Part shown: positions 1 through 14,508 of the stretch, piece after piece
Layout: each line of letters starts with the position of its first letter
Numbering within the stretch: the stretch's first letter is position 1
Position numbers and translations under genes: made by a program
Origin: Jimgerdemannia flammicorona
Taxonomy: Eukaryota; Mucoromycota; Endogonomycetes; Endogonales; Endogonaceae
Assembly: GCA_003990745.1 (NCBI GenBank)
Contig: RBNI01004191.1
Location: forward strand, 1 to 14,508
DNA: 14,508 nucleotides
Direction: 5' to 3'
The notes under the pieces: generated by a model
What the model saw: only the letters and a program-made list of their open reading frames with translations
Told to the model about the DNA's origin: nothing
Database searches by the model: none

Positions 1-232
1 TTTTTTTCCTTATGTGTGCATAGCTGGTGCATGATTAGGAAGTGTGGGGGTCTGCGTTTCTTGAACCCATTTAGAACGTTGTTGACCCCATCACAGCACC
101 TTTTCTTCACCAAATCTTCATCTCTGTATCCGGAAAGCCTCCATTGTCTACGCCATCCTCCTCCTCCTCATTGTCGCCTCTATTACCACCATTGCAATCG
201 CCATCACCGTCAAATACGTGCGATTTTTCTAA
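1..232 (+). CDS. C-terminal exon of a membrane protein, 5' end outside the window
   Basis: From about base 97 the + strand reads as a short tail followed by a strong hydrophobic segment and a basic end, closing at TAA 230-232. The hydrophobic part (bases 137-205) starts ASIVYAILLLLIVASITTIA and continues with more small and aliphatic residues; the last residues are KYVRFF. This frame has a stop at 83-85 and no ATG after it, so the exon must be joined to an upstream exon. The sequence CATCACAG ending at 96 is a reasonable intron acceptor. One membrane helix with a short basic cytoplasmic tail is all that can be stated. The family is not recognised and the exon start is uncertain. Confidence 0.4.
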
Positions 233-1035
233 TTGAGCGAGAAATGGCTAGCTAATATATGCAAAGCCGCTCGCCCGGCAAATTCATTGAGCAAAATACA
301 ACGAAGAATTTGACAGTATTCTGTCTTTTCAAAGGCACGTGGAAAAGTCCGTTGTATTAGGGAGTTTGTGTGACGGGCTTGGCCCAACACCTTATTATGT
401 GCAGCTCTAAGCGGTTACTAACATAGATAATTGGTCGCGTTACAGACGTACGAGTTAATTTTACCTTTCCAAGGAGTCGAGTCGCCGTCGGACACCTGGA
501 TGTTTCAGATTGATAAGAATATAAAAGAGGATTAAATTAATGTACCCACGCATATTCACATTCGACGCCCAAAGGCTGGGAAACAGTAAGAATATCATGG
601 TTTCGGACTTTCTTTCGATGGCTGCTATTGACTCGATTTTCTTATCCAATATCAGTTACGACGCATCTTTAGATTGATATGAACCAAGCTCGACCACAGG
701 TACCGAGAGCTCGGGAAACTAAAGTATTTGGCGGAGATTAATTTCCAGGCTGCATTGTCTCCCCATATATTGACGGGTTTCCGCCTGCTGATGGCTCATT
801 GTGTGTCGTTGCTAAATTTGGTGGTGTAACATCTACAAGAGGTTAGTCCATTTTTGGAATGGTTTAGCAGCCAGTTCATTCTCCGCTACTCTCTAGTCTC
901 TTCTCTGACACAACCAGATAATCAATTGTGAAACAACAAGACCCTCTTCAACAAAATTGTTTCGTTTGCTCGCAACCACCATCATTGACTTGACCCCTTA
1001 CAGACCACATACCATCCCATCAAATCAATCACCGC
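233..1035. other. Intergenic stretch with probable promoter and leader of the 7TM gene
   Basis: I find no convincing reading frame on either strand across these 800 bases; the short open frames have no protein-like composition. The last 150 bases change character: a pyrimidine-rich stretch around 885-906 is followed by CA-rich sequence up to the ATG at 1036. This is the usual look of a fungal transcription start and 5' leader. No clear TATA box was identified. Confidence 0.4.
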
Positions 1036-2525
1036 ATGGATACGCCTCAATCACGAACCGCCGTGCCTTTTGAAGAGACTCTTGGCCAGCTAGTTTGTAT
1101 CGCATGCATCTCTGCCATGTCCGCACTGTTTGGCATCAAAATCGCTGGAAATCGGCTTAAGGACCTCAATTACGCAAGAATTCTCGTACTGCTGCTATAC
1201 GTCACATCATGGGCATTCACCAACATGGCAGCCGTGCTTATATCGACGAACACAGGTATGTTATGTCGTAGGACACCCTAATACCCATTATGCCCAAGTA
1301 AAGTTCTTAACCCGTATCGCTTTCGTTTAAACATAGGGAATTTCGTTTCGTGCAATGTGTCTATTTTGGCCTGTGTTACGTTCTATGCTGGAAGCAATAT
1401 TGTCATGTATCTCTGGTATGTATCTCGTTCGAATCACGAAAATATCAATAATAGCGATGTAATGATTGAACAGTTTATATTTACATCCTTCACATTTTCA
1501 GGTTAATTGAAAGAGTCTGGATTGTAACGTTGGTGAAGACGAGCCGCATGGAGAGTCTCTTATACAAATTCCATTTGTTATTGCTAACACCATACATTGG
1601 CATATTTATCTTAATGGTGAGGGTTCTAACTAAATCTTTCATCTGTCTTTCAGGATAACTCATATATAATCATCTAATCAGATATTGCATTTTATATTAC
1701 ATTAAAAGATTCTATTTCGAATTGGTCACCTCAATCCAGATGTAACTTGTCACATTGGGTTGCAACGGGTAGCTAGCATTCCCCTCGTGGTAATATTATT
1801 CATCTTTTATGTGTATATGAGAGGGTTGGGCATGAAAATTTACAAATTAGTCATATAATCCATAACGAAATTTCCTGTTCCATCCTTTTTCCACTCCACT
1901 CTATGCCTCTAGATTTACGATTTTGTGAGTAAGAGTCTGTGCAGATATTTAAAATATAGCATCTCATGCACGCTGATCCGTTTCCAATTCCTCTTATGAA
2001 TCTCAGGTCTTCAACAGCTATCTTACTATCCTCTTCATCCGGCCTCTCACTTCTCGGGAATGGCCGAACTCCACCTCCTTTCTGAATCGGATAAGTCGGC
2101 GAACTATGGTTGCCTCCATAACCTGTCTCATCACCTCTGCTGCAAACATCACTACGTTGGTGATAATAGACCGTGGGGAAAGAGATTTTCTCTGCCTCGC
2201 AATGTGTTCGTTCGATGTAACATTGAACGTGGCTTCGGTCCACTGGGTGCGTAGCAGGCTTATTTCGTTTTCGTCTCTTTGCAACGTTTTTCAAAGGCGA
2301 GGCTCAACGTTTCGGCTATCTCTCTCACTCATTTTTTTAATTTATTTTCTTTTGTGCACACAGGTCACATCGGGAGCAAGATCGAATCATGCAAGCAACA
2401 AATCCCACTATCCCGACTTAGAACATGAGAGTGGTCCCAAGATATCTGACAAGGAGTCCGAGGTGCACATCGTGACTGAGATGTCACATCAGAATACATT
2501 CGAGTTGCCGACGATGGAAAAATGA
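1036..2525 (+). CDS. Seven-helix fungal membrane protein, 7 exons (302 aa)
   Basis: Proposed exons are 1036-1255, 1337-1415, 1502-1616, 1709-1789, 1913-1924, 2007-2246 and 2364-2525. Together they make 909 nt with stop TGA. Donors are GTATGT, GTATGT, GTGAGG, GTAATA, GTGAGT and GTGCGT. Acceptors are TAG, CAG, AAG, TAG, CAG and CAG. The spliced product has seven hydrophobic segments, at about residues 15-37, 46-70, 74-100, 119-142, 155-182, 200-221 and 225-245, and then a hydrophilic tail of about 55 residues. The join across exons 4-5-6 gives IPLVIYDFVFNSYLTILFIR, a continuous helix-like segment that none of the exons gives alone. The architecture matches conserved hypothetical seven-helix proteins of ascomycetes, some of which resemble receptors; ligand and function are unknown. 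The sixth intron (2247-2363) is in frame and open, so a retained form would add 39 residues. The AAG acceptor of intron 3 is the weakest junction: the better-looking acceptor at 1681 would bring in a stop. Confidence 0.8.
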
Positions 2526-3241
2526 CCGGTCTTTTAATGCTCGTTTTGGCAGGATATAAAATCATCTTCCTTGGTTGATATATGCGTTGGAATTCGCTCT
2601 CATCTTTATGTTCATATTTGGTTGGCATATTTAAGATGCCAGTCAGATCGGAGTTATTCATTTCACATACTGTGGTCTTAATGCAGATACTAAGCGCCTT
2701 TCAACAAATGTAATTTTTTTCTTTTCTTTTTTTCTCACTAGGTAGACAGTTTGAAGTGTAAGTGCTATGAGCAAAATATTAGAAAACCTACGCCCTAAGG
2801 ATACTGTTATTACGGAATGATACACGCTGTATTTATGATCAGTGTATAAATATTATCTTTAAACCATTATCATACAAGCATAGCTCAACGAAAGTCGGGG
2901 AAACCCATAATCGCGAAATCCATTTTATTTGCTTTATAGGCGGTGTACACTTCCATTTTAACTGATATTAAAATACACTATCAATAGACGACATGCTGTG
3001 AGGTATCATTAAGTAAGTAATTATATGTCATTTAATTTTCTGATTCGTTTGCGAATAATCGGGCCAGCGAAATACCGCATTTTTTACATGCGTGCATTAC
3101 AATCAAGGGGCGGTTGCAGTCCTATTTTCTATGGTATATACATATCTGTCTGATGCCTTCAACATTTCCTTTCTTCTGAACAATCATCCCAGCTCTGGCC
3201 GTAAAACCAATCGATTCCGTCCCACGCGTTTCGCCTACAGT
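2526..3241. other. Downstream and intergenic DNA, no gene seen
   Basis: This holds the 3' flank of the seven-helix gene and a moderately AT-rich spacer. A pyrimidine run lies at 2713-2740. The open frame at 3092-3322 on the + strand has no protein-like pattern and overlaps the end of the minus-strand gene, so it is not called. No RNA gene or repeat was seen. Confidence 0.4.
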
Positions 3242-3883
3242 TTAGATCGTGCACTTGGCACATCCGTCGTACTCTCGGACGCCGTAATCCGTTATGACGC
3301 TCTTCCCAGTGCTCGCAAATGACGCAACCGAACACCTAACGCTGTTCTCTTTCGTCAATGTAGGAATGGCGGTCGAGGCAATATGTTCCATTTGACTTGC
3401 GATGACCGTTGAGATCGGTGATTCAACCTTGTTGACGATGCCGAGTTGCGCGCAATGTAGCTCGCGTTTCACCTGCGCATATTCCCTTCTGAGCTCCATC
3501 TTACCCTGGTTCAATTGTTCGATTCTGAAAGAGCTCTTTTGAGCGTTTGCCGCGCCGCCTACATCGTTTGGACCCGCTACGCGCTCCGGGGCAAGCCCGA
3601 TCAGTCTCCGCGTGTGCGCCAGGCGGAAGATTGCACGCATGCTGGACCAGTGCGATACCGTATACGAGGGGCAGGAGAGGTGGCACGACGAGGATGGAAT
3701 CACGGCAACCGCGGCTCGGGGCCTGGTCGCCAGAATGAGTGTCACAATGATGGCGATGCCAAATTCCTCCTGCTGCAGGCCGATGAGCAGGAATCTCACC
3801 GAGTACGTCAAAATGAATGGTGCCCACTTCACCTCTTGTAGGCCTCGTTTCCGAGTCGTAGCATATCGAACCTCACATCCATA
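3242..3883 (-). pseudogene. Probable 5'-truncated host gene ending at the AT-rich block
   Basis: The minus strand is open for 213 codons, from 3883 down to the TAA at 3244-3242. The upstream stop (3886-3884) lies exactly where composition switches from balanced to AT-saturated. There is no suitable in-frame ATG near the 5' end. The codons favour C and G at third positions and the product looks protein-like: a hydrophobic stretch near residues 38-55 (FGIAIIVTLILATRPR), a basic middle part, and a hydrophilic helical-looking tail (KMELRREYAQVKRELHCAQL). The simplest reading is that the 3' part of a host gene survives and its 5' part was lost when the repeat block formed. Alternatives are an unspliced exon of an intact gene or a chance frame. 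The family is not recognised. Confidence 0.4.
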
Positions 3884-4023
3884 CTATTAAAAAATGTATC
3901 CAATATTTTATTTCTAGTAAAAATATAATATAATTTATATTTTAAATTTTATCTACAGATATAGGAAATAATTACTTTATAATTTTACAATTTTTATAAA
4001 TATTTAGTTATACAGTTAAATAC
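3884..4023. other. Left arm of AT-saturated block
   Basis: These 140 bases are nearly all A and T and begin abruptly after the balanced DNA to the left. No coding signal is visible. The LTR retrotransposon starts at 4024, and similar AT-saturated sequence resumes directly after its right LTR at 10739. The element therefore appears to be inserted inside one block. Confidence 0.7.
4020..4023. repeat. Candidate target-site duplication, left copy
   Basis: ATAC precedes the left LTR and ATAT follows the right LTR at 10739-10742. They differ by one C-to-T change, as RIP would give. In such AT-rich DNA four bases carry little information, so this is only a candidate. Confidence 0.3.
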
Positions 4024-4278
4024 TGTGATGGCTGATCCAAATTAGTAACATGAAACAGGGGAATTAGACATTTGATTGCAGTATCTGAATCTGATTCCCA
4101 ATATAGTTTAGCCTTATAAATAGCAGTCATATTCTGCGAAGTGCAGAAACTTTAACATTCGCAAAGATTTAGGAGATATTAGAATGTTTGCAATCAATGA
4201 AATCCTAGCAGATATTAAAAGATTTGATACTTGCAGAAAATGACTTACTACTTAGTCATCTTATAGCTAGCAAACCCA

Positions 4279-4286
4279 TATAAATA
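4279..4286 (+). promoter_or_regulatory. LTR TATA box candidate
   Basis: TATAAATA lies in the middle of the LTR and is conserved in the right copy at 10529-10536, although the bases just before it differ. A second TATA-like site (TTATAAA) lies at 4114-4120. The central position suits the U3 promoter of the retrotransposon transcript. Confidence 0.5.
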
Positions 4287-4304
4287 ACCCAGTATCTTTG
4301 AGTG

Positions 4305-4310
4305 AATAAA
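4305..4310 (+). promoter_or_regulatory. LTR AATAAA polyadenylation-like signal
   Basis: AATAAA is present in both LTRs at equal offset (10555-10560 in the right copy). In the 3' LTR it would serve to end the element's transcript. Its position just after the TATA-like box implies a short U3-R junction region near 4310. Confidence 0.4.
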
Positions 4311-4490
4311 CCTCAGATCGAAATAGTTCAAGCAAAGAGAAAGCAAAGAAACTAGTAAGCCTGTGGGCAGATACACTTCGAACTCACCCATCCCTGTACC
4401 TCAAGGACTCCACAGAGTCAAAGAAGAGCAAGTTTTCAAGATACAGAAATTCGACGTACTTCAAAGGTTAAGCATCCACTATGTTACAAC

Positions 4491-4508
4491 TTGGTGCCCA
4501 TTGGCTGG
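4491..4508 (+). promoter_or_regulatory. Primer-binding site candidate
   Basis: TTGGTGCCC follows the LTR end after two bases. The TGG triplet pairs with the CCA end of a tRNA, the normal minus-strand primer arrangement. The sequence further along does not contain the expected complement of a T-arm, so the match may be short or the tRNA is not one I recognise. RIP may also have altered it. Confidence 0.45.
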
Positions 4509-4602
4509 TGATTCAAGATGAATCTCTCACTTTTAAGCTGAACAATGAACAACTGCCACCACCCGAACAACCATATAAACTGAGGCAAGATATCAAGACA
4601 AG

Positions 4603-5655
4603 ATGGATATAAGACCACCAGTATTCCATGGATATATCTCAGATGAATCAATCATCACCTTCATTGATGATTTCAAGCAGTATGCTGCTGTAAGAACTCT
4701 GACAGTAGCACAGCAAGTAGCCCTCATGCCCTTCAGCCTACAAGGTCCTGCCAGAGCAGCATTCACAGCTGCAATCCATGCAGAGAATGATGCTGATGCT
4801 ATACTGACAGTATAGAAGATCTGGCTCCAAAACACCTATTACACAGATGAGATTAAGTAAGCTCTGAAGGATCAGCTCAATACAACATGGCAAGGAATGA
4901 GCAAGAATCCAAACACATTCTACACCCAAATCTGATATCAGATAATCCTCACAGATTATGCTGATGCTATCTGAGATCAAGTAGCCAAAGCAAGCTTTAT
5001 GAAAGGAGTCCACTCAGAGATAGCTATGGCCATTTGCTCATCACCAGTAGTTCTGGATCTACCACAAAAGGTCACCTATGCTTAGCAGTATTGGATAGCC
5101 AGACATCCACAAGACCACACAATGGAAAGAGTCACTGGAGTTAGAATTGAAGCACTGAAGGCAACCAGTGTGATCTCCACCACAATGATCAATCAAAACA
5201 CACCTCAAACAAGAGCTACAGAGTAGCAGAGAAACAGTGACCCCATGGAGGAGCTTGCCAAGCAGTTCACTGAAATGACTGCTCATTTAGAGGATATAGT
5301 AAAAGAAATTAGAGGAAGAGATCACCGCCTGATTCAGAAGTTTGCCACCACCTCAGACAAGAAGAAAGGTACCTACTATAGCTGTGGAGAAGAAGGCCAC
5401 TACTCATATGAATGTATGAGTGAAACTAAGTATAAGGTCCAGCCGAGCAATGCTACTAAAAATAAAGAACAGGCCAACATCATTACCTTCAAGGAAATTG
5501 GAGAGTCAGATGAAGAATGGGAGATCTATTCTGCACAGACTACCAAGAAGGATGTTCACAAGGAACCCTACAAGAGACCACCAGGAAGACCCAAGAAGAA
5601 CCTGGTGGAAAAACAGATGGAAATAGCCACAGAAAGCCAAGCCAAAGAAATGGAT
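4603..5655 (+). pseudogene. Gag region: capsid-like part, zinc knuckle, AT-hook-like motif
   Basis: The N-terminus (MDIRPPVFHGYISDE) and the following FIDDFKQYAA segment resemble the start of Ty3/Gypsy Gag capsid domains. Stops lie at 4813, 4858, 4933, 4969 and near 5083 and 5224. A nucleocapsid knuckle lies at 5374-5415. Its pattern should be CX2CX4HX4C; the last three ligands are Cys (5383), His (5398) and Cys (5413), but the first is Tyr (TAC at 5374), one G-to-A step from Cys. After it come acidic residues and then the basic KRPPGRPKK at 5572-5598, which matches the core of an AT-hook. Gag would package the RNA; the AT-hook could bind the minor groove of AT-rich DNA (inference). Confidence 0.8.
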
Positions 5656-5939
5656 TAAGATATAGAGCTCGAGCAGGTAGTCCAAGACATCATCTGAGGA
5701 ACCACTCTAGCTAGCGAAGGAAAAAAGGAGAAGAAGCTTTGCAAAACCAAGACTTTCAAGTATGATATCTTCAAGGATCTTAGCTAATAAAAAGTCAATG
5801 CAACCTTTGGCCAGCTTACAGAAATTTCTACATTTAGACAGCAAATGAGATTTGGACTTACTGAAACAACCAAGGAGTAGGGTTGGAAGATAACTGAAGC
5901 CAACAATGTTCAAGAAGATTCTGGAGAAGAAAGTGAAGA

Positions 5940-6310
5940 CAACTACAAGACTTCTGCCTATGCAATCTGCCAAATCGAAGACAGAATCTTTGAAGCCATC
6001 ATAGATACAGGAGCAGGAGGATGCCTTCTCAGCAAGAAGGCAGTAGACTGTCTGAGATGGGAGGTCAAAGAAGCAACCAAGTTGGTGTTTATTACAGCAG
6101 ATGGCACAAGAGCCACCCCTTTGGAAAAAATCTGAGATGTTCCCATCAAGTTTGGAGGAGCAACTATCCCAGTAGATGTGATAGTAACTAATGCAATCAA
6201 CTATGACATTCTTATTGGCAACCAGTGACTTCACAAAGCCAGAGCAATAATCGACCTGAATGTCCAGAAGATGCAGATTATCTACCGAGGTCAGAAGATG
6301 CGAATTCCCA
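5940..6310 (+). pseudogene. Retropepsin-type aspartic protease domain
   Basis: The domain matures the polyprotein. The active site IIDTGAGGCLLS is intact, with catalytic Asp at codon 6004-6006. The second conserved segment, YDILIGNQ followed by a stop and LHKARAIID, has TGA at 6226 where Ty3/Gypsy proteases carry Trp, one G-to-A step away. Another stop lies near 6133. The region after it (6370-6690) is a Lys-rich and then Glu/Asp-rich linker leading to the dUTPase. Confidence 0.85.
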
Positions 6311-6690
6311 TCAATGTCAACAAAGGAGTACTCCCCAAGATGGAGGAAGATGAGCAAGAAGAAGCTTACATAGTGACCATACAGAAAAAGAAGAAGAAAG
6401 TTGGATGGATGAGTGAAGAAGAATGGTGCAAGAAGATTGCAGAAGGATATACACCACAAGGAGTCTGTCTGCATGGGATCTGAATGTACTGTATAGAGCA
6501 TGTCAATGAGTGCTACCAGTACACTGGCAAAATCAAGGAAATCTACCACCAAAGAAGAGAGAAGACTCTCAAGGAATAAGCCAAAGAGGAAAAGAAGGAG
6601 GAGGAGGAAGATGATGAACCACCAGCCCTTCTGGAGGACAGTGATGATGAAGAAGAAATCAAGGTCAAAATCTGGAAGATTCACCCTAAT

Positions 6691-7080
6691 GCAGTCCTGC
6701 CAGAATACAAATCGGAAAATGCAGCTGGAATGGATATCGCCATAGTGGAAGAAACTGTACTTGAACCCCAGACAACTACTCTACTTACAACTGGCCTGGA
6801 GATGACCATCCTAAAGGATCATGTCAGGATCCTCAAAACAAGAAGCAGTTTGGTAAGAAGCAAAATTACAATTGAAGGAGGAGTCATTGATTCAGACTAC
6901 ATCAGAGAAATACTACTCATCGCTAGGAATCACAATCCTACTATTCCATTCCCAATTAAGAAGAAGAACTGACTGGCACAGATGTTGATCTTCCCAGTCT
7001 GACAACCAAAGATCATAAAAGTCAAGAAGTTGGAGGAAATGAAAAGAGAAAAGAAAGGATTCAGATCTATAGGAAAAGGA
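6691..7080 (+). pseudogene. dUTPase domain embedded in Pol between protease and RT
   Basis: dUTPase hydrolyses dUTP to dUMP and so limits uracil in new cDNA. All five motifs of the homotrimeric family can be read in order in the gag-pol frame. Motif 1 is AAGMDI (Asp 6733-6735). Motif 2 is TRSSLVRSK (6838-6864). Motif 3 is GGVIDSDYIREI (6877-6912, key Asp 6889-6891). Motif 4 is a stop at 6970 followed by LAQM, where Arg-Ile-Ala-Gln is usual. Motif 5 is GFRSIG (7057-7074), against the usual GFGSTG. The differences are single transitions: TGA from CGA, AGA from GGA, ATA from ACA. A second stop lies at 7000. Domain length and the lead-in with Leu-Pro before motif 1 fit the family. dUTPases inside pol are known from some retroviruses and reported for some LTR elements; which lineage this one belongs to was not determined. 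Confidence 0.85.
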
Positions 7081-7199
7081 GTATTCACCAGTACCAAGAT
7101 CACTGAACTGGATCATAAGAAGGAGGAAACCACAAACAAGCACAGCTATACTATTGGAAACAAATTCCCACTCAAGGAGGAACTCAAGAAAATACTCCA

Positions 7200-8110
7200 T
7201 GAATTTGAGGATGTCCTCATCACAGACTTCAAGAATATCAAAGAAAAAATACCACACTACTATCATGAGGTAGATACTGGAGACATCGAACCAATTTACC
7301 AAAAAGTAAGACCTGTCCCACCAGCCTACTGGGAATGGCTCAGAGAAGAAATCAAGCAGATGGAAGAAGCCGGTATTATCAAAGAAGTCAGTAGCCCCTG
7401 GTCTTCACTAGTTGTACTAGCCCCGAAAAAAGAAAGCAAGTTTGGAGAATTTGCCCCAAGACTCTGTGTCGACTACAGAAAGCTCAATGCAGTTACCAAG
7501 AAGGATCGCCAATCACTGCCCCTCATCAGCAACATCCTTATAACCCTGAGAGATGAAGCACAGTACTACAGCACCTTGGACTTATACTCAGGATTCCACC
7601 AAATTGGACTCATAGAAATGGCAAGTGAAAAGTCAGCCTTCATAACCCCAGATAGAACCTACATCTACCTGTGAATGCCATTCGGGATGTGTAATGTACC
7701 AGCAAGCTTCCAGCAAATGATGAACAAAATCTTCCACTATGACATGAAAAGATAAATGATGGTTTACATTGATAATGTAATCATCTACAGCAAGACACCT
7801 GAGGAATATCTACAGCACATATAGCAGATAATGGAAAGTCTGAGAAAGCATGACCTGTACATCAAGCCCAAGAAATGCAAGTTTGCAGAAATCGGGATCT
7901 CCTACCTTGGCCATATTATCAATCAAGATGGAACACATATGGACCCCCTCAAGATATAAGCAGTAGCAGCATACCTAAGGCCCACTACTGTCAGGGAAGC
8001 CCAAGCCTTAATGGGACTCACCTCCTACTATTGTAGATTTATTAGAGGATTTTTCAACATCGCAGGTCCAATCTATGAACTCAACAAGAAGGACATTAAG
8101 TTCCAGTAGA
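7200..8110 (+). pseudogene. Reverse transcriptase domain, catalytic motif mutated
   Basis: The polymerase copies element RNA to DNA. Ty3/Gypsy RT landmarks are clear: PVPPAYWEWLREEI, then EEAGIIKEVSSPWSS, LCVDYRKLNAVTKKD, YSTLDLYSGFHQIG (first catalytic Asp 7579-7581), MPFGMCNVPASFQ, and the YxDD box at 7765-7776. That box reads YIDN: the second Asp is AAT at 7774, one G-to-A step from GAT, in a TpG context expected of RIP on the other strand. Later KPKKCKFAEIGISYLGHII and LMGLTSYYCRFIRGF mark the connection region. Stops at 7672, 7753, near 7822 and 7960 also inactivate it. Confidence 0.95.
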
Positions 8111-8560
8111 CTGGCAGACAACAAAAAGCATTTGACAAACTCAAGGTCAGACTGACCCAGGCACCTATCCTCAGATGACCCAATTGGACTCAAGAATTCA
8201 TCCTGTAGACTGATGCAAGTGCACAGGGACTAGGAGCAGTCCTAGCTCAAAAGAAAGACAAGAAAGAGTATGTTATTGCATATCTTAGCTGCAGAACCCG
8301 AGGAGCTGAAAAAGAATATGAATCCTATAAGTTGGAATGTCTCACAGTCATCTGGGCCATGGAGAAGTTCCACTACTACCTGGCTGGAAGACACTTCACT
8401 ATTCAGACAGACCACTCAGCTCTTGCCTGGCTACTGACAACTGGATAACTCAAAGGAATCTATGCCAGATAGATAATGAAACTACAAGCCTACAATGTAA
8501 CTATTGTGCACTGCCCTAGAAGAACAAATTCCAATACAGATACTCTCTCATAGATACCCC
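8111..8560 (+). pseudogene. RNase H domain
   Basis: RNase H removes the RNA strand after minus-strand synthesis. The catalytic acidic residues are kept: Asp in TDASAQGLGAVL (8212), Glu in KLECLTVIWAM (8335) and Asp in QTDHSALAWLL (8410). The domain ends near RTNSNTDTLS plus a stop at 8551, where the family usually has an ADALSR-like end. Stops at 8107, 8176, 8206 and several near 8446-8475 break it. The reading frame is lost shortly after 8553. Confidence 0.9.
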
Positions 8561-8581
8561 AAAACACCTCCAACCAACAAA

Positions 8582-9790
8582 TCAATTATGAATAAGGAGC
8601 TCTACTACAGAATCGTCACATATCTGAGACAGCAAAAGATGCCCCAACATCTGGAAGAATGGACACAAATGATTATCAACAGGACATGGAAACAATTCAA
8701 AACCGACAGAGAAACACTGAGGAAAGGAAAACTACTAGTCATACCAGAACACAAGAAGGAGCAAGCAATGAAATCAGTATATGAACTCGGCTATCTAGAA
8801 GGAATCAATACATATGATAAGGCAAGAAGAATGATATGGTGGCCAGGAATGGAGGAAGATATCAGACAATTTGTCAAAATGTGTGACAAATGCCAGAAAC
8901 AAAAACAAGACCAACAAAACCAAGCCCCGGGATCAGCACACATAGAACCAATACTATTTGCCCACATAGCAATGGATGTAATTGGCCCCCTACCCCTGAC
9001 CTTGACTGGCAACTGATATATCATTATTATCATAGACCTTTTTATGAAATAGATAGAAGCAGGACTCCTCAAGGAAGCCAATGCACAGTCAATTGCTGAT
9101 TTCTTCTACAAAGAAATCATCTACCAGTTCAAGACCCCAATACAAGTAACTACAGACAGAGGAATGGAATTCATGAACCAGTTCTTTGAGGTTCTCTACA
9201 AGAAGTATAAGATCCAGCATATTCGAACCACAGCCTACCACCCTCAAGGAAATAGACAAGCAGAAAGGACAAACAAGATTCTCAAGAATGTTATCGCCAA
9301 GATCTGTGATAACTATGAAAACTGGGATCACTATCTGCTAATAGCATTATTGGCCCTTTGGAATATTAGATTACAAAGTACCTATTTTATCCCTCAGGAA
9401 ATACTGTTTAGAGAAGAAAGTTCTTAAGGAACCCTATTGTCCAATAGAGATACTGTATGGAAATAAGTAGACACAGAGATACGGAAACTGCACCAAATCA
9501 GGAAGAAGGCTGAGGATTACATAAACAAGGTGCAGACACTACAATGGAATAATGTGGAAAAGATTCACAAGCCCCTGGAGATTATCAAGATAGGAGACAA
9601 AGTTCTGATGTATTGAAATATAGTAGAAGCTTCATAGTCATAAAAGCTGGAGTCTAAGTGGAAAGGACCTTACCTTGTGCAAGATATAAAAGAGACCACC
9701 TTTTGGCTATAAAAACTCTCAGGCATAATCATCCCTACTACTATTCACTGAAACCAACTCAAGAAGTATCATGACCAATCAACAAAGTAA
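8582..9790 (+). pseudogene. Integrase with zinc finger, DDE core and GPY/F module
   Basis: Integrase inserts the cDNA. In the second frame the HHCC zinc finger keeps both Cys (8882, 8891 in CDKCQ). The two His positions read Tyr (TAT at 8780 and 8792, in VYELGYLEG), each one C-to-T step from His. The catalytic triad is intact: Asp in MDVIGPL (8975), Asp in TTDRGMEF (9155) and Glu in QAERTN (9263), with 35 residues between the second and third. Near 9012 and 9050 stops replace conserved residues, including the Trp of the usual KWIEA segment. The C-terminal module has KWKGPYLVQDI (9656-9688) and ends NQLKKYHDQSTK before TAA 9788. No chromodomain follows. Confidence 0.9.
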
Positions 9791-9815: not shown

Positions 9816-10295
9816 ATGGCCCAGTGAGCTATAGAAAGACAGTGGTGTTCCACCAAGCCACTAATGATGGAGGAATCCTTTGACAGCATCCAGAGTATAG
9901 TGCAGATACACTTATCATAGATCTTACATTTCAAGGCCTACCAGAACTAAACCGAGTTCCAGGAATACTTCAAGTTAGGACAGCTACTGAATTCAAAACC
10001 AAAGATGGGAAAAGAAGACTAGATCAAGGAATGTCAGCTCTCCTACATTCAAATTATGATTGCAAAAAGAGTACACAAGTTATTTAAGGATGATAAAGCA
10101 GTCTTAGCCCACTTCCAGGAAGTAATCCCAGGAGACTTCGGATACATCAAGAGACAACACTGGAAGAATATAATGATACAAATCATGCAGTATAAGGAGA
10201 TATAAATTGTAGAAGCCTGGGAATTCGAGTGAATAGGATACTCCGAAGATGAATCACCTATTTAGAAGAAAGATGTGATGGCTGATCCAAATTAG
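9816..10295 (+). pseudogene. Putative ORF3 after integrase, reaching into the 3' LTR
   Basis: An ATG with a good context (A at -3, G at +4) lies 25 bases after the pol stop in the third frame. The frame runs 159 codons to TAG 10293-10295, which is 20 bases inside the LTR. It is broken by about seven stops, all one step from Gln, Arg or Trp codons, the same density as gag-pol. The reading looks protein-like and hydrophilic, with segments such as FQEYFKLGQLLNSKPKMGKE and HFQEVIPGDFGYIKRQHWK. It has no membrane segment, so it is not env-like. The polypurine tract is inside it. I do not recognise the family. A rival open stretch in the second frame (9884-10085) is shorter and less convincing. Confidence 0.5.
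10264..10273 (+). promoter_or_regulatory. Polypurine tract
   Basis: AGAAGAAAGA is an uninterrupted purine run ending exactly at the first base of the 3' LTR. That is the position of the plus-strand primer in LTR retrotransposons. In ORF3 the same bases are read as Lys-Lys-Asp. Confidence 0.7.
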
Positions 10296-10738
10296 TAATA
10301 TGAAACAGGAGAATTAGACATTTGATCGCGGTACCTGAATCTGATTCCCAATATAGTTTAGCCTTATAAATAGCAGTCATATTCTGCAAAGTACAGAAAC
10401 TTTAATATTCACAAAGATTTAGGAGATGTTAGAATGTTTGCAATCAATGAAATCCTAGCAGATGTTAAAAGATTCGATACTTGCAGAAAATGACTTACTA
10501 CTTAGCCACCTTATAGCTAGCAAACTTGTATAAATAACCCAGTATCTTCGAGTGAATAAACCTCAGATCGAAATAGTTCAAGCAAAGAGAAAGTAAAGGA
10601 ACTAGTAAGCCTGTGGGCAGATACACTTCGAACTCACCCATCCCTGTATCTTAAGGACTCTGTAGAGTCAAAGAAGAGCAAGTTTTCAAGATACAGAAAT
10701 CTGACATACTTCAAAGGTTAAGTATCCACTATATTATA
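10274..10738 (+). repeat. 3' LTR
   Basis: The same length as the 5' LTR, starting TGTGATGG and ending TTATA where the other copy ends TTACA. Both LTRs carry the ORF3 stop (TAG 10293), the TATA-like box and AATAAA. Changes are shared out between copies: some sites are C or G only in the left copy, others only in the right. This fits independent mutation of both after insertion. Confidence 0.95.
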
Positions 10739-12060
10739 ATATATATAATCTATAAATTTAGTTTAACTCTTTGTTATTATTATAATTTAAATAATCATTT
10801 TTACTTAAATATTTTTTCATCATTGTTTTTATTTTATTACTATCTTTATTTTTAAATATTAGTTTTATTATTTTAATTTTTATTATTATATATTATTATA
10901 TTAATTTTCAGTCTCTAGAAAGTTTAATATAATTATTTAGTATTAATTATATATTTTTTAAAAATTATAATATAAATATATACATATAATATAATATTCT
11001 GTTTTAGTTATAAAATTTTAATTAAACTATTATAGTAATTTAAAGATTTTAAAAGATTTTAAATAGTAAATTATCTTAATAATATTTATATCTTGAATAA
11101 ATATATAAGTAAAACTTAGTAATAATATTATTTATATAAAAAGAGTATTAAGTATTAATAATAATAATAATAAAATAATATAGCTATAGAAATTACTAAA
11201 AGAAAATTAAAGTTTAAGTAATATAACTATATATTAATCTTTTAGAATAATCAATCAACTATTACTGAAATAAAAAATTATATATTATAATTAAATAAAA
11301 TATAACATAACTAATAGTTTAATATTTATATTAATAAAAACAAAAATTTATATCAACTTTAACATTAATATAATATATACTAGTTTAAAATTTATAATAG
11401 ACTTAATATATATCATAAGATATTTTTAGACTTTTAAAAGAGTTTTTATATTTCTACTCTATATTTTTTATATTTTAATTTTCTTTATTATAAATTTTAT
11501 ATTTATTATAATTAATATTTAGATTTTAGATTTTAAATTCTTATCAATATTTTATATTTATAGTTATTTAGTTAATTTATATTTCTGTTTTTTTTTTTTA
11601 TTCTATATTTTTATTTTATAATTTAATTAGTTACTTAGATTATAACTCATTAAGTAAGAGCATTAAAATAAAACTTAAATAATAAGTATTTTATAACTTA
11701 GACTTAGATATAAATATTATCAAAGATATATTATTAATATTTATAATATATAAATATATAGATATTTTAAGTATTAATAAAATATTCTTTATTCTTTATT
11801 TTTTATTTTAAATATATTATTAATAATATTTTATTTATAAAAACAGTTTAGAAATATATCTGAATATATATTATATTAGTAATATCAGTCTTATTAATTT
11901 TATAACTACATATTTACTCTTACTAATCTATATTATTTAATTTATTTTAAAAGTATAATTGTAAAATTTAATATTAAAAGTCTTAATATATATTTATCTT
12001 TTTAAATATTATCTATATTATTTTTATATACTCTTATTTATTATTTTATAATAATTACTA
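10739..12060. other. AT-saturated block, no readable gene
   Basis: By eye about nine in ten bases are A or T over 1.3 kb, with runs of TATTA and TTTAAA type words and no protein-like frame on either strand. It is the right arm of the block that begins at 3884. The likeliest origin is old repeat DNA driven to near-pure AT by RIP. A mitochondrial insertion cannot be excluded, but no mitochondrial gene was recognised. Confidence 0.7.
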
Positions 12061-12062
12061 AT

Positions 12063-13295
12063 ACTGAAAAAAAGAATTAATTGAATATAATATAGTGTCA
12101 TGTAGTAGTCACTGAGTCCTTCAAATATATCAGATTCTCTTCAAGATATATCTCTTAAACTAACTATAAGTTTGTTATAAGTAAGTTCTTATTGAAGTAC
12201 CTTCTCAAGATCTTATAGCCCTCAAACTTCTTATCTTTAAATTGTCTTATTATCTCTTAGATAGCTTGTATAGAATTGAATATAAGTGAACTTGACTGAC
12301 TTTATTTCAAAGAAAATAAGAGAGATATTTATATAAAATATAATTCAATAGTTACTAAGATATAAAGCTAAATATAAATTTCAATAACCAAATAAAATAC
12401 TAGAATACAGAAAACTTCAGTTATAAGTACAAATTCAAGTATCTGTATAGATAGTTGTATAAGTTCAGAATGCTAGTAGATTTCAGTAATACAGAAAAAG
12501 AATGCTGATAGAATTCAGTTATATAGAAAAAGGATGCCAGAAGATTTTGATGTTACTAAGAACTTAGAGCAGAATGTTCAGAATCCTGGGGGCTTCATCT
12601 TTATTACTATTATCAAAACTAGAGATTGGAAATAGGATGTCTTTGAAGAAGATGAGATCAGCAAATGTTTTGTCCATTTTGTATACTTTGTATATATTAC
12701 CAATTAGCAGAATAATGTCATCACTAATGATATCATTATGTTTGGTGACAGGGAGAGCAAGGAGATCTGAGACTTTCTAATTTATAAAGATATCTTCTAT
12801 AAAATAAAGAACAAATATAGGGTCTTGAGAAGGTCTAACCTAGATGCTGGAGCCTTGGAATACTGAGATCAATTCTTACAGGAATTGATCTGGATTATTC
12901 TGGAGAATGAGATTCCAGAATTCTTCTACTTCATCACTATTGAGAGTGATAGTAGACTAGACTTCTGTAGCCACCATAGTCTTTAGTATATTGGTATAGC
13001 AGGCTGACAATTCCTTGAAGTCTGAGACTCTAGTATACTCTAAGTTGGGGATTGATCATGTGCATGCCTAGAGACCTGATAAATCTTCTTGGCTATCATA
13101 CATCTATAGAAGTAGCATCTTATATCTCTTGAGGACTAGCCTGAGAGAATTCCTAGTAGAGGAGATTTCTTATTTTATATTCCTGCCATATTCAGAGATA
13201 TTCAGTAGTGATAGTAATCCTTGTTTCCATTTTATAATAGTAAAGAATATAGTGATAAGAGTTACTAGTACTCAGATTGAGGCTAGAAGTCCTTC
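12063..13295 (-). pseudogene. Long decayed protein frame of unknown family
   Basis: One minus-strand frame stays protein-like over about 411 codons without a frame change, interrupted by about 23 stops. Most stops are TAG, TAA or TGA where Gln or Arg would fit. Readable pieces include SIPNLEYTRVSDFKELSACY, the acidic LNSDEVEEFWNLILQNNPDQ, SDLLALPVTKHNDIISDDII and KDILFPISSFDNSNKDEAPR. The stop density and AT drift grow toward 12063, where the AT-saturated block begins. The beginning is unclear: the first 40 codons are hydrophobic and may be leader. No transposase, RT or other motif was seen, so this may be a repeat-encoded protein or a host gene caught in mutation spreading from repeats. Confidence 0.5.
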
Positions 13296-13923
13296 TTATA
13301 TAGCTTCTTATATACAACTGCTCCTTTCTCTGCTACCTTACTGATCACAAGGTTTGGTAGGCAACCTTCCGAGTCCCCTTCCCCTATTATTACCCCTCTA
13401 CCTCAGGTTGGTTTGCTGTACCTGCATGGGCATGGTGGGAGGAGGGCAATAGTGATGAGTTGCCCCTTTATTGGTGTCAGATTGGTGTCTTTTCCACTTT
13501 TTTGTAGTTTCTGGTGTCTTCAGCTACATCTGGAGTGCATCCGTTTTGGTGTGGCACCTTCTTCCTTTTGCTGTCACCAACAAGGTGCTGTCTCGGTGTA
13601 TCTCGGGCTACATAGGGAGTCAGCTGACCTTGGGTGTCAAGTGCTCAGTGTAGGTTACCTGTAGGTCCTCAGTGCCTGTGGTGGGGCCCTCTGGCTTTGG
13701 TAAGCTTCCTGGCGAGCACGGTTCTGGCATAGGTGACTGCTTTTCAGGTGATGTTGGGATAGGAGGAGAGATGGCTGTCACAGATAGGAGGAAGGGTGAT
13801 TATGATGAACTAGTGGGGTGCCAGGCTGGGGGCGGTCATTGGGGCTAGGGTGGACAATATTTCGGTGGGACCTTTCGATTGGCTAGTGGGGAGTGGGGTG
13901 GTGCAGGGGCCGGTATCCTGGCT

Positions 13924-14070
13924 GTACCCAACTGGAACTGGGAGCTGATGCAGCAATGCGATCGAGATCCACAGGCTTGGGGAGTGGGACCTTCCTCATT
14001 TGGCAGTACCCAACTGGAACTGGGAGCTGACATGGCAACGTGATTGAGGCCCACAGGCTCGGGGAGTGGG
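13924..14070 (+). repeat. 82-bp tandem duplication (two copies, second partial)
   Basis: Copies begin at 13924 and 14006 with GTACCCAACTGGAACTGGGA. The first 25 bases are identical. The next 40 align without gaps with about ten differences, all transitions. The period of 82 is not a multiple of three, so the repeat would not keep a reading frame and is more likely part of a control region or leader. Confidence 0.8.
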
Positions 14071-14409
14071 AGTGGGATCTCTTCAGGCCCTAGCCCATGT
14101 GTAAGTCCTTTGAGAAAGATGCTGCATATAAGTCCTTTACTCACTCACTTTGAATCCACTTTGCTCTCTGTTGGTTAGTTGGGGGGTTTTTCTTTACCTC
14201 GGACTTTCTTTTGGGGTTTGGGAGGCTATTCTTTATTCAGTCCCAGCACTGCTAGATCTGACGTATAGGTGTGCTCTTGCATGTAAACAATGATCCAGCC
14301 CTAGTGAGCAGACAAATCTAGTCTATGTCATGGGGGTTGACGTAGCCAGTGTTCGACAGGCATAGCTGGAGTGGTGGGACTGCTGGACAATTTAGTAGCC
14401 TAGGTTAAT

Positions 14410-14508
14410 GGGGGGATATTGTTCGGTGGGTAGTGGGGGAGGGTTTTGGCCTATATAGTCTAGGTTCCCTTTCAATAAAAATCCGCGGGACTATAAGTCC
14501 GTTAAAAA
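14410..14508 (+). repeat. Possible LTR start cut by the window edge
   Basis: A G-rich run (TGGGGGGATAT, 14409-14419) is followed by TGTTCGGTGGG from 14420, then a TATA-like CTATATAG (14451-14458) and AATAAAAAT (14475-14483). Polypurine tract, TG start, TATA box and poly(A) signal in this order are typical of the right end of an LTR element. The partner LTR was not found in the window; a loosely similar TTTCGGTGGGAC near 13860 is too short to count. Confidence 0.3.

What the first reader, a model, noticed from the sequence alone, without database searches (positions are those of the whole stretch)
6691..7080. dUTPase domain between protease and reverse transcriptase of a fungal Ty3/Gypsy element
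All five trimeric-dUTPase motifs are readable in order inside the gag-pol frame: AAGMD, TRSSLVRSK, GGVIDSDY, a stop plus LAQM, and GFRSIG. The placement between PR and RT differs from the best-known pol dUTPases of non-primate lentiviruses (between RT and integrase) and of betaretroviruses (fused to the nucleocapsid-protease junction). A dUTPase would matter for an element whose cDNA is made in resting cells with high dUTP.
Basis: partly seen in the sequence, partly recalled or inferred. Interest (0 to 1): 0.75.

Follow-up and report, generated by a model that had tools for sequence, protein, structure and literature searches.

The report
Fungal retrotransposon carrying a dUTPase domain
A decayed, high-copy Ty3/Gypsy retrotransposon in a likely fungal genome carries a dUTPase domain between its protease and reverse transcriptase, which in working copies would likely have kept uracil out of the new DNA; this arrangement was already known from other fungi and some animals.

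The parts
4024..4488 (+). 5' LTR
   Evidence: Repeat finder and alignment to the 3' LTR, 463 sites compared; exact end read by eye.
4492..4508 (+). possible primer-binding site just after the 5' LTR
   Evidence: Read by eye (starts TGG); no tRNA was matched to it.
4579..4815 (+). start of the gag frame, stop-free piece
   Evidence: ORF list; no Pfam match.
5227..5658 (+). nucleocapsid part with CCHC zinc knuckle
   Evidence: zf-CCHC 21.1 bits against 20.8; zf-CCHC_3 6.6e-5, below its cut-off.
5881..6135 (+). aspartic protease
   Evidence: gag-asp_proteas 4.1e-5 in the window piece, below its cut-off; 1.9e-11 in the as-found copy L093, above it.
6424..6522 (+). Cys/His module between protease and dUTPase, with a stop at 6481 in this copy
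   Evidence: Conserved Cys/His columns over 40 copies; aligned to the module of family C; no Pfam match in L093 over this stretch other than a chance-level one.
6580..6669 (+). acidic linker
   Evidence: Read; a like linker in P0001, P0155 and P0156.
6670..7080 (+). dUTPase domain, all five motifs in order, two in-frame stops (6970, 7000)
7102..8100 (+). reverse transcriptase
   Evidence: RVT_1 2.3e-6 in piece 7003-7671, slightly below its cut-off; 3.2e-7, above it, in L069.
8209..8448 (+). RNase H
   Evidence: RT_RNaseH 2.7e-27.
8501..9427 (+). integrase (zinc-binding part and core)
   Evidence: Integrase_H2C2 8.7e-14; rve 1.9e-5, below its cut-off.
10264..10273 (+). purine tract before the 3' LTR
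   Evidence: Read by eye.
10274..10738 (+). 3' LTR
   Evidence: exact end read by eye.

Best explanation
A trimeric-type dUTPase domain lies between protease and reverse transcriptase in the pol frame of a decayed, high-copy Ty3/Gypsy retrotransposon, where in working copies it would likely have hydrolysed dUTP so that the reverse transcriptase made uracil-poor cDNA. Shown: the domain, its place, its presence in 39 of 40 copies found through the RT, five of 40 copies that read the segment without a stop, a metagenome relative (P0156) with the same order in an open frame, and decay dominated by transitions. Inferred: that the protease freed the domain or that it worked inside Gag-Pol, that it was active as a trimer, that low dUTP protected the cDNA from uracil excision, and that the decay is RIP. 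The plus strand inside the element is 37.6% A, so first-strand cDNA would be 37.6% T, which by inference would make it more exposed to dUTP than the flanking DNA.
Against: No activity, expression or particle data. In the window copy motif IV is cut by a stop and motif V is altered. Over 40 copies the motif I Gly is kept in 32, the acidic residue of motif IV in 37, the glycine after motif III's Tyr in 18, and the second glycine of motif V in 15. Within-family pN/pS gives no clear sign of constraint on dUTPase: 0.81 of a neutral simulation, while off-frame controls range from 0.75 to 1.85. The host's own DUT gene was not recognised among the scored matches, so whether the host lacks dUTPase at some stage is unknown.
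Confidence: 0.8

Rival explanations
1. The domain is kept for a non-catalytic task, such as spacing or assembling Gag-Pol or binding nucleic acid together with the neighbouring Cys/His module, much as one bovine lentivirus needs a dUTPase-related gene whose product lacks the activity.
For: PMC4261571 (title and start of abstract in a search listing) reports such a gene. Here a Cys/His module adjoins the domain in families A and C. dUTPase is less conserved to P0156 than RT is.
Against: All five motifs are kept in P0156, and the eight catalytic columns counted are kept in 38-40 of 40 copies.
Confidence: 0.12
2. A passenger: a dUTPase captured once and carried along by amplification of one lineage, without selected use.
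For: Within-family pN/pS is close to the neutral simulation.
Against: Motifs are kept in relatives 55-59% identical, and two further families in the same genome also carry dUTPase in gag-pol.
Confidence: 0.07
3. A host or viral dUTPase gene that merely landed inside one copy.
For: None found.
Against: 39 of 40 RT-found copies keep it in the same place, and it is in frame with PR and with RT in as-found copies.
Confidence: 0.01

Closest known systems
PosPlaTy3-5 of Postia placenta (PMC2864245, passages read)
   Same: Fungal Gypsy element with dUTPase between PR and RT.
   Different: That paper centres on chromodomain elements; no chromodomain was found in the two 3' pieces scanned here.
Tmt1 of Tuber melanosporum (cited in PMC2864245; original paper not read)
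   Same: Fungal LTR retrotransposon with dUTPase.
   Different: Not compared by sequence.
Juno, Vesta and TelKA of bdelloid rotifers (PMC5408684, passages)
   Same: dUTPase between PR and RT; Juno has an extra zinc knuckle after it.
   Different: Animal retrovirus-like elements, some with extra ORFs. In the window family the Cys/His module lies before the dUTPase.
Planarian giant Gypsy-like elements (PMC6431247, passage)
   Same: dUTPase-like domain between PR and RT.
   Different: Very large elements with further domains.
Betaretroviral and non-primate lentiviral dUTPases (PMC4531489, passages)
   Same: Enzyme type; dUTPase made as part of a polyprotein.
   Different: Placed on the gag side of PR, or between RNase H and IN. 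Family B of this genome has the former kind of place, the window family neither.

Membership tests
Trimeric dUTPase (PF00692) | Profile match above the curated cut-off | tested here: met
   49.4 bits against 22 for the window piece; 94 bits for L049.
Trimeric dUTPase (PF00692) | Five motifs in order with the catalytic residues | tested here: met
   All in order in the window, with motif IV cut by a stop and motif V altered; residues counted in 40 copies.
Trimeric dUTPase (PF00692) | dUTPase fold | tested here: met
Trimeric dUTPase (PF00692) | dUTP hydrolysis; homotrimer | not testable with these tools
   Needs purified protein.
Ty3/Gypsy LTR retrotransposon | Direct LTRs around gag and PR-RT-RH-IN in that order | tested here: met
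   some window pieces are below Pfam cut-offs, PR and RT are above them in L093 and L069.
Ty3/Gypsy LTR retrotransposon | Target-site duplication | tested here: inconclusive
   Flanks read by eye show no exact 5-base duplication; the right flank is very AT-rich.
Chromovirus | Chromodomain after the integrase | tested here: inconclusive
   No match in pieces 9884-10084 and 10023-10202; the rest of the broken 3' part was not scanned.
PR-dUTPase-RT Gypsy elements (PosPlaTy3-5 type) | Order of domains | tested here: met
PR-dUTPase-RT Gypsy elements (PosPlaTy3-5 type) | Common descent with the named elements | not tested
RIP-mutated repeat | Mostly C/T and G/A differences, enriched at CpA | tested here: met
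   148,557 of 174,145 pairwise differences are transitions; 34,792 of 59,958 C/T differences with a shared 3' neighbour stand before A, not corrected for how often C stands before A. LTR pair: 30 transitions, 0 transversions in 463 sites, 8 of 18 C/T ones before A.
RIP-mutated repeat | RIP machinery in the genome | not tested
   Not searched.

The most novel reading that the evidence does not exclude
dUTPase and a Cys/His module with no match in the libraries searched form a movable block in Gypsy gag-pol: protease-module-dUTPase in the window family, dUTPase-module-protease in family C of the same genome. Together with the module-free family B, this genome has been colonised by three lines of retrotransposon that each took up dUTPase separately, which would make it a test bed for why retroelements repeatedly need this enzyme.
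Probability: 0.25. Interest if true: 0.5.

Novelty: new member of a known kind. Interest (0 to 1): 0.33.

Why it matters
dUTPase in fungal retrotransposons is in print, but PMC2864245 says that its role and origin remained unclear. A genome with three dUTPase-bearing families in two kinds of placement, two of them read in many copies, lets repeated capture and selection on the enzyme be studied within one host.

Tried and rejected
Selection inside family A: pN/pS against a simulation with the observed mutation spectrum gave 0.81 (dUTPase), 0.72 (RT), 0.97 (PR) and 0.68 (linker), but off-frame controls ranged from 0.75 to 1.85, so nothing is claimed (300 of the 780 pairs were used for the observed values).

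Dating by LTR divergence (K2P 0.069) was set aside because all 30 differences are transitions.

One common origin of dUTPases A and B: holding them together gave p-AU 0.0165 with 37 rows and 0.0518 with 38 rows after adding P0156. Not rejected: A+C 0.347 and A+P0034 0.266, B+C 0.386, A+B+C 0.222, A+B+C+P0043/P0044 0.208, B+P0043/P0044 0.424. P0033 was dropped from both of those sets as a long branch (it is in the 38-row tree). Rows were picked from the best matches to A and B, so the sample is biased. No retroviral, no host DUT and no Tmt1 row is in the trees.

Host DUT gene: three searches each scored 150 places, and none could be told apart as the host gene; not shown absent. DUF6534 found nothing here or in the controls, so it tells nothing about the kind of fungus. 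The model of P0156 is unusable (mean pLDDT 38.9). Module of P0157: alignment to that of C does not exceed shuffles.

Full report
In the frame of base 4603 the five trimeric-dUTPase motifs follow each other between about 6721 and 7080, with stops at 6970 and 7000. The piece before the first stop matches PF00692 at 4.8e-13 and many solved dUTPases. Upstream lie a CCHC knuckle and an aspartic protease; downstream lie RT, RNase H and integrase. The protease, RT and integrase-core matches of the window fall under Pfam's cut-offs; the pieces are short and decayed. LTR copies that start at 4024 and 10274 bound the element.

The segment belongs to the element. A search with RT alone also scored 40: the window, 20 places beside ones of the first list, and 19 others. 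Of these 19, 18 carry the whole dUTPase stretch (three of them lack part or all of PR) and one, L091, lacks PR, linker and most of the dUTPase. Both lists are capped, so they are not a census. Over the 40 aligned copies (window and 39), five (L049, L065, L069, L074, L077) have no stop in 6670-7101. As found, L093 reads PR, Cys module and most of dUTPase in one 426-residue frame, and L074 and L069 read dUTPase into RT. The catalytic residues are almost fixed: motif I Asp 39, II Arg 39, II Ser 40, III Asp 38, III Tyr 40, IV Gln 39, V Phe 40 and V Ser 40, each of 40. Other motif positions vary: motif I Gly 32, the acidic residue of IV 37, the glycine after III's Tyr 18, the second glycine of V 15. 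The predicted fold of L049's domain is that of dUTPases.

Decay. Between the 40 copies, 148,557 of 174,145 differences are transitions, and 34,792 of 59,958 C/T differences with a shared 3' neighbour stand before A. The LTR pair of the window differs at 30 of 463 sites, all transitions. This is the pattern expected of RIP (recalled); the enzymes were not searched. Stops at 6970 and 7000 occur in 27 and 25 of 40 copies, which may be repeated mutation at favoured sites or shared descent; the two were not told apart.

Relatives. P0001 (55%), P0155 (74%) and P0156 (55%) from public collections share the Cys module, the acidic linker and the dUTPase in the same order; P0001 starts only at the end of the module and P0155 ends near motif IV. 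P0156 reads on into RT in one open frame with all five motifs. The lineage is therefore not confined to this one sequence collection.

Other dUTPases in the genome. A PF00692 search scored 150 places, all above the cut-off. The 30 cut out form one single-linkage cluster at 90% DNA identity: family B. Its locus L012 reads Gag, CCHC (by eye; Pfam 0.085), dUTPase (1.4e-36) and protease (RVP_2 6.2e-8) in one 467-residue open frame, L031 gives the same order over two pieces, and L011 continues into RT (2.1e-34). One further locus, L105 (family C), reads CCHC (19.1 bits against 20.8), dUTPase, Cys/His module and protease (25.1 bits against 28.2). Nine matches span the whole 52-residue fragment as that of L105 does; eight of them, L105's included, have the module 271-274 bases downstream of the matched dUTPase part on the same strand, and one (C4427) has no partner in that capped list. 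Only L105 was read by sequence. The module of C aligns with that of A at score 135 against a maximum of 73 in 2,000 shuffles, and with that of P0156 at 146 against 47; P0157 at 28 does not exceed its shuffles. The L105 piece has no match in Pfam, NCBIfam or PDB. So the module lies between dUTPase and protease in both families, with the order of the three reversed.

Trees. Family A, P0001 and P0156 form a clade (100/99) that falls with the bacterial rows (99/95), and family B falls with the eukaryote-like rows. Forcing A and B together is rejected at 0.0165 in one set and not at 0.0518 in the other; A with C is not rejected. Separate capture is thus plausible, not shown.

Known context. PMC2864245 (passages) reports dUTPase in Postia placenta elements at the amino end of Pol, at its carboxyl end, or between PR and RT, and cites Phanerochaete and Tuber. 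PMC5408684 (passages) gives PR-dUTPase-RT for rotifers, PMC6431247 (passage) for planarians, fungi and rotifers. PMC2774666 (passage) likens betaretroviral dUTPase to that of fungal chromoviruses, and PMC11105155 (passage) lists dUTPase among Pfam domains enriched in Entomophthora muscae. For the retroviral rationale, passages of PMC4531489 and PMC3511177 were read. In the listings and in the passages read I saw no description of a Cys/His module beside a retrotransposon dUTPase other than the rotifer zinc knuckle; only asked for zinc motifs, most listed papers were not opened, and the library lacks most subscription papers, including the 2008 originals.

Mechanism. Most likely the domain worked as a dUTPase near the RT, lowering dUTP during cDNA synthesis. 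Internal plus-strand composition is 37.6% A and 21.2% T, against 26.2% A and 31.3% T in window 1-4000, so the first cDNA strand would be T-rich. That this mattered for uracil excision in the fungus is inference.

Noticed in passing
L012 829-2229, L031 1492-2208, L011 1492-3384 (family B): A second dUTPase-bearing Gypsy-type family in the same genome, with dUTPase between Gag and protease, as in betaretroviruses.
   Followed up: partly
L105, about 474-860 and 912-1070: A third dUTPase lineage (family C) before the protease, followed by a Cys/His module homologous to that of the window family.
   Followed up: partly
P0043 and P0044 (public metagenome proteins): dUTPase flanked by what looks, by recalled motifs only, like the end of a Gypsy RNase H and the start of an integrase, the place known from lentiviruses. 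Pfam matched only dUTPase and the related DCD family.
   Followed up: no
window 8448-8501: The reading frame moves by one between RNase H and integrase in this copy; decay or design was not examined.
   Followed up: no
window 10750-12000: A stretch of about 10% G+C directly after the 3' LTR.
   Followed up: no
window 12560-13060: An older repeat: 39 other scored places at 76-81% identity in a capped list.
   Followed up: partly
window 13650-14508: Another high-copy repeat: 39 other scored places at 90-92% identity in a capped list, 10 of them starting 11-23 bases from a contig end, as the window's own copy ends. It holds a 71-base direct repeat at 13919 and 14001.
   Followed up: partly
window 994-2525: Open pieces that look by eye like a multi-exon membrane-protein gene; no Pfam match in the four pieces scanned.
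   Followed up: no
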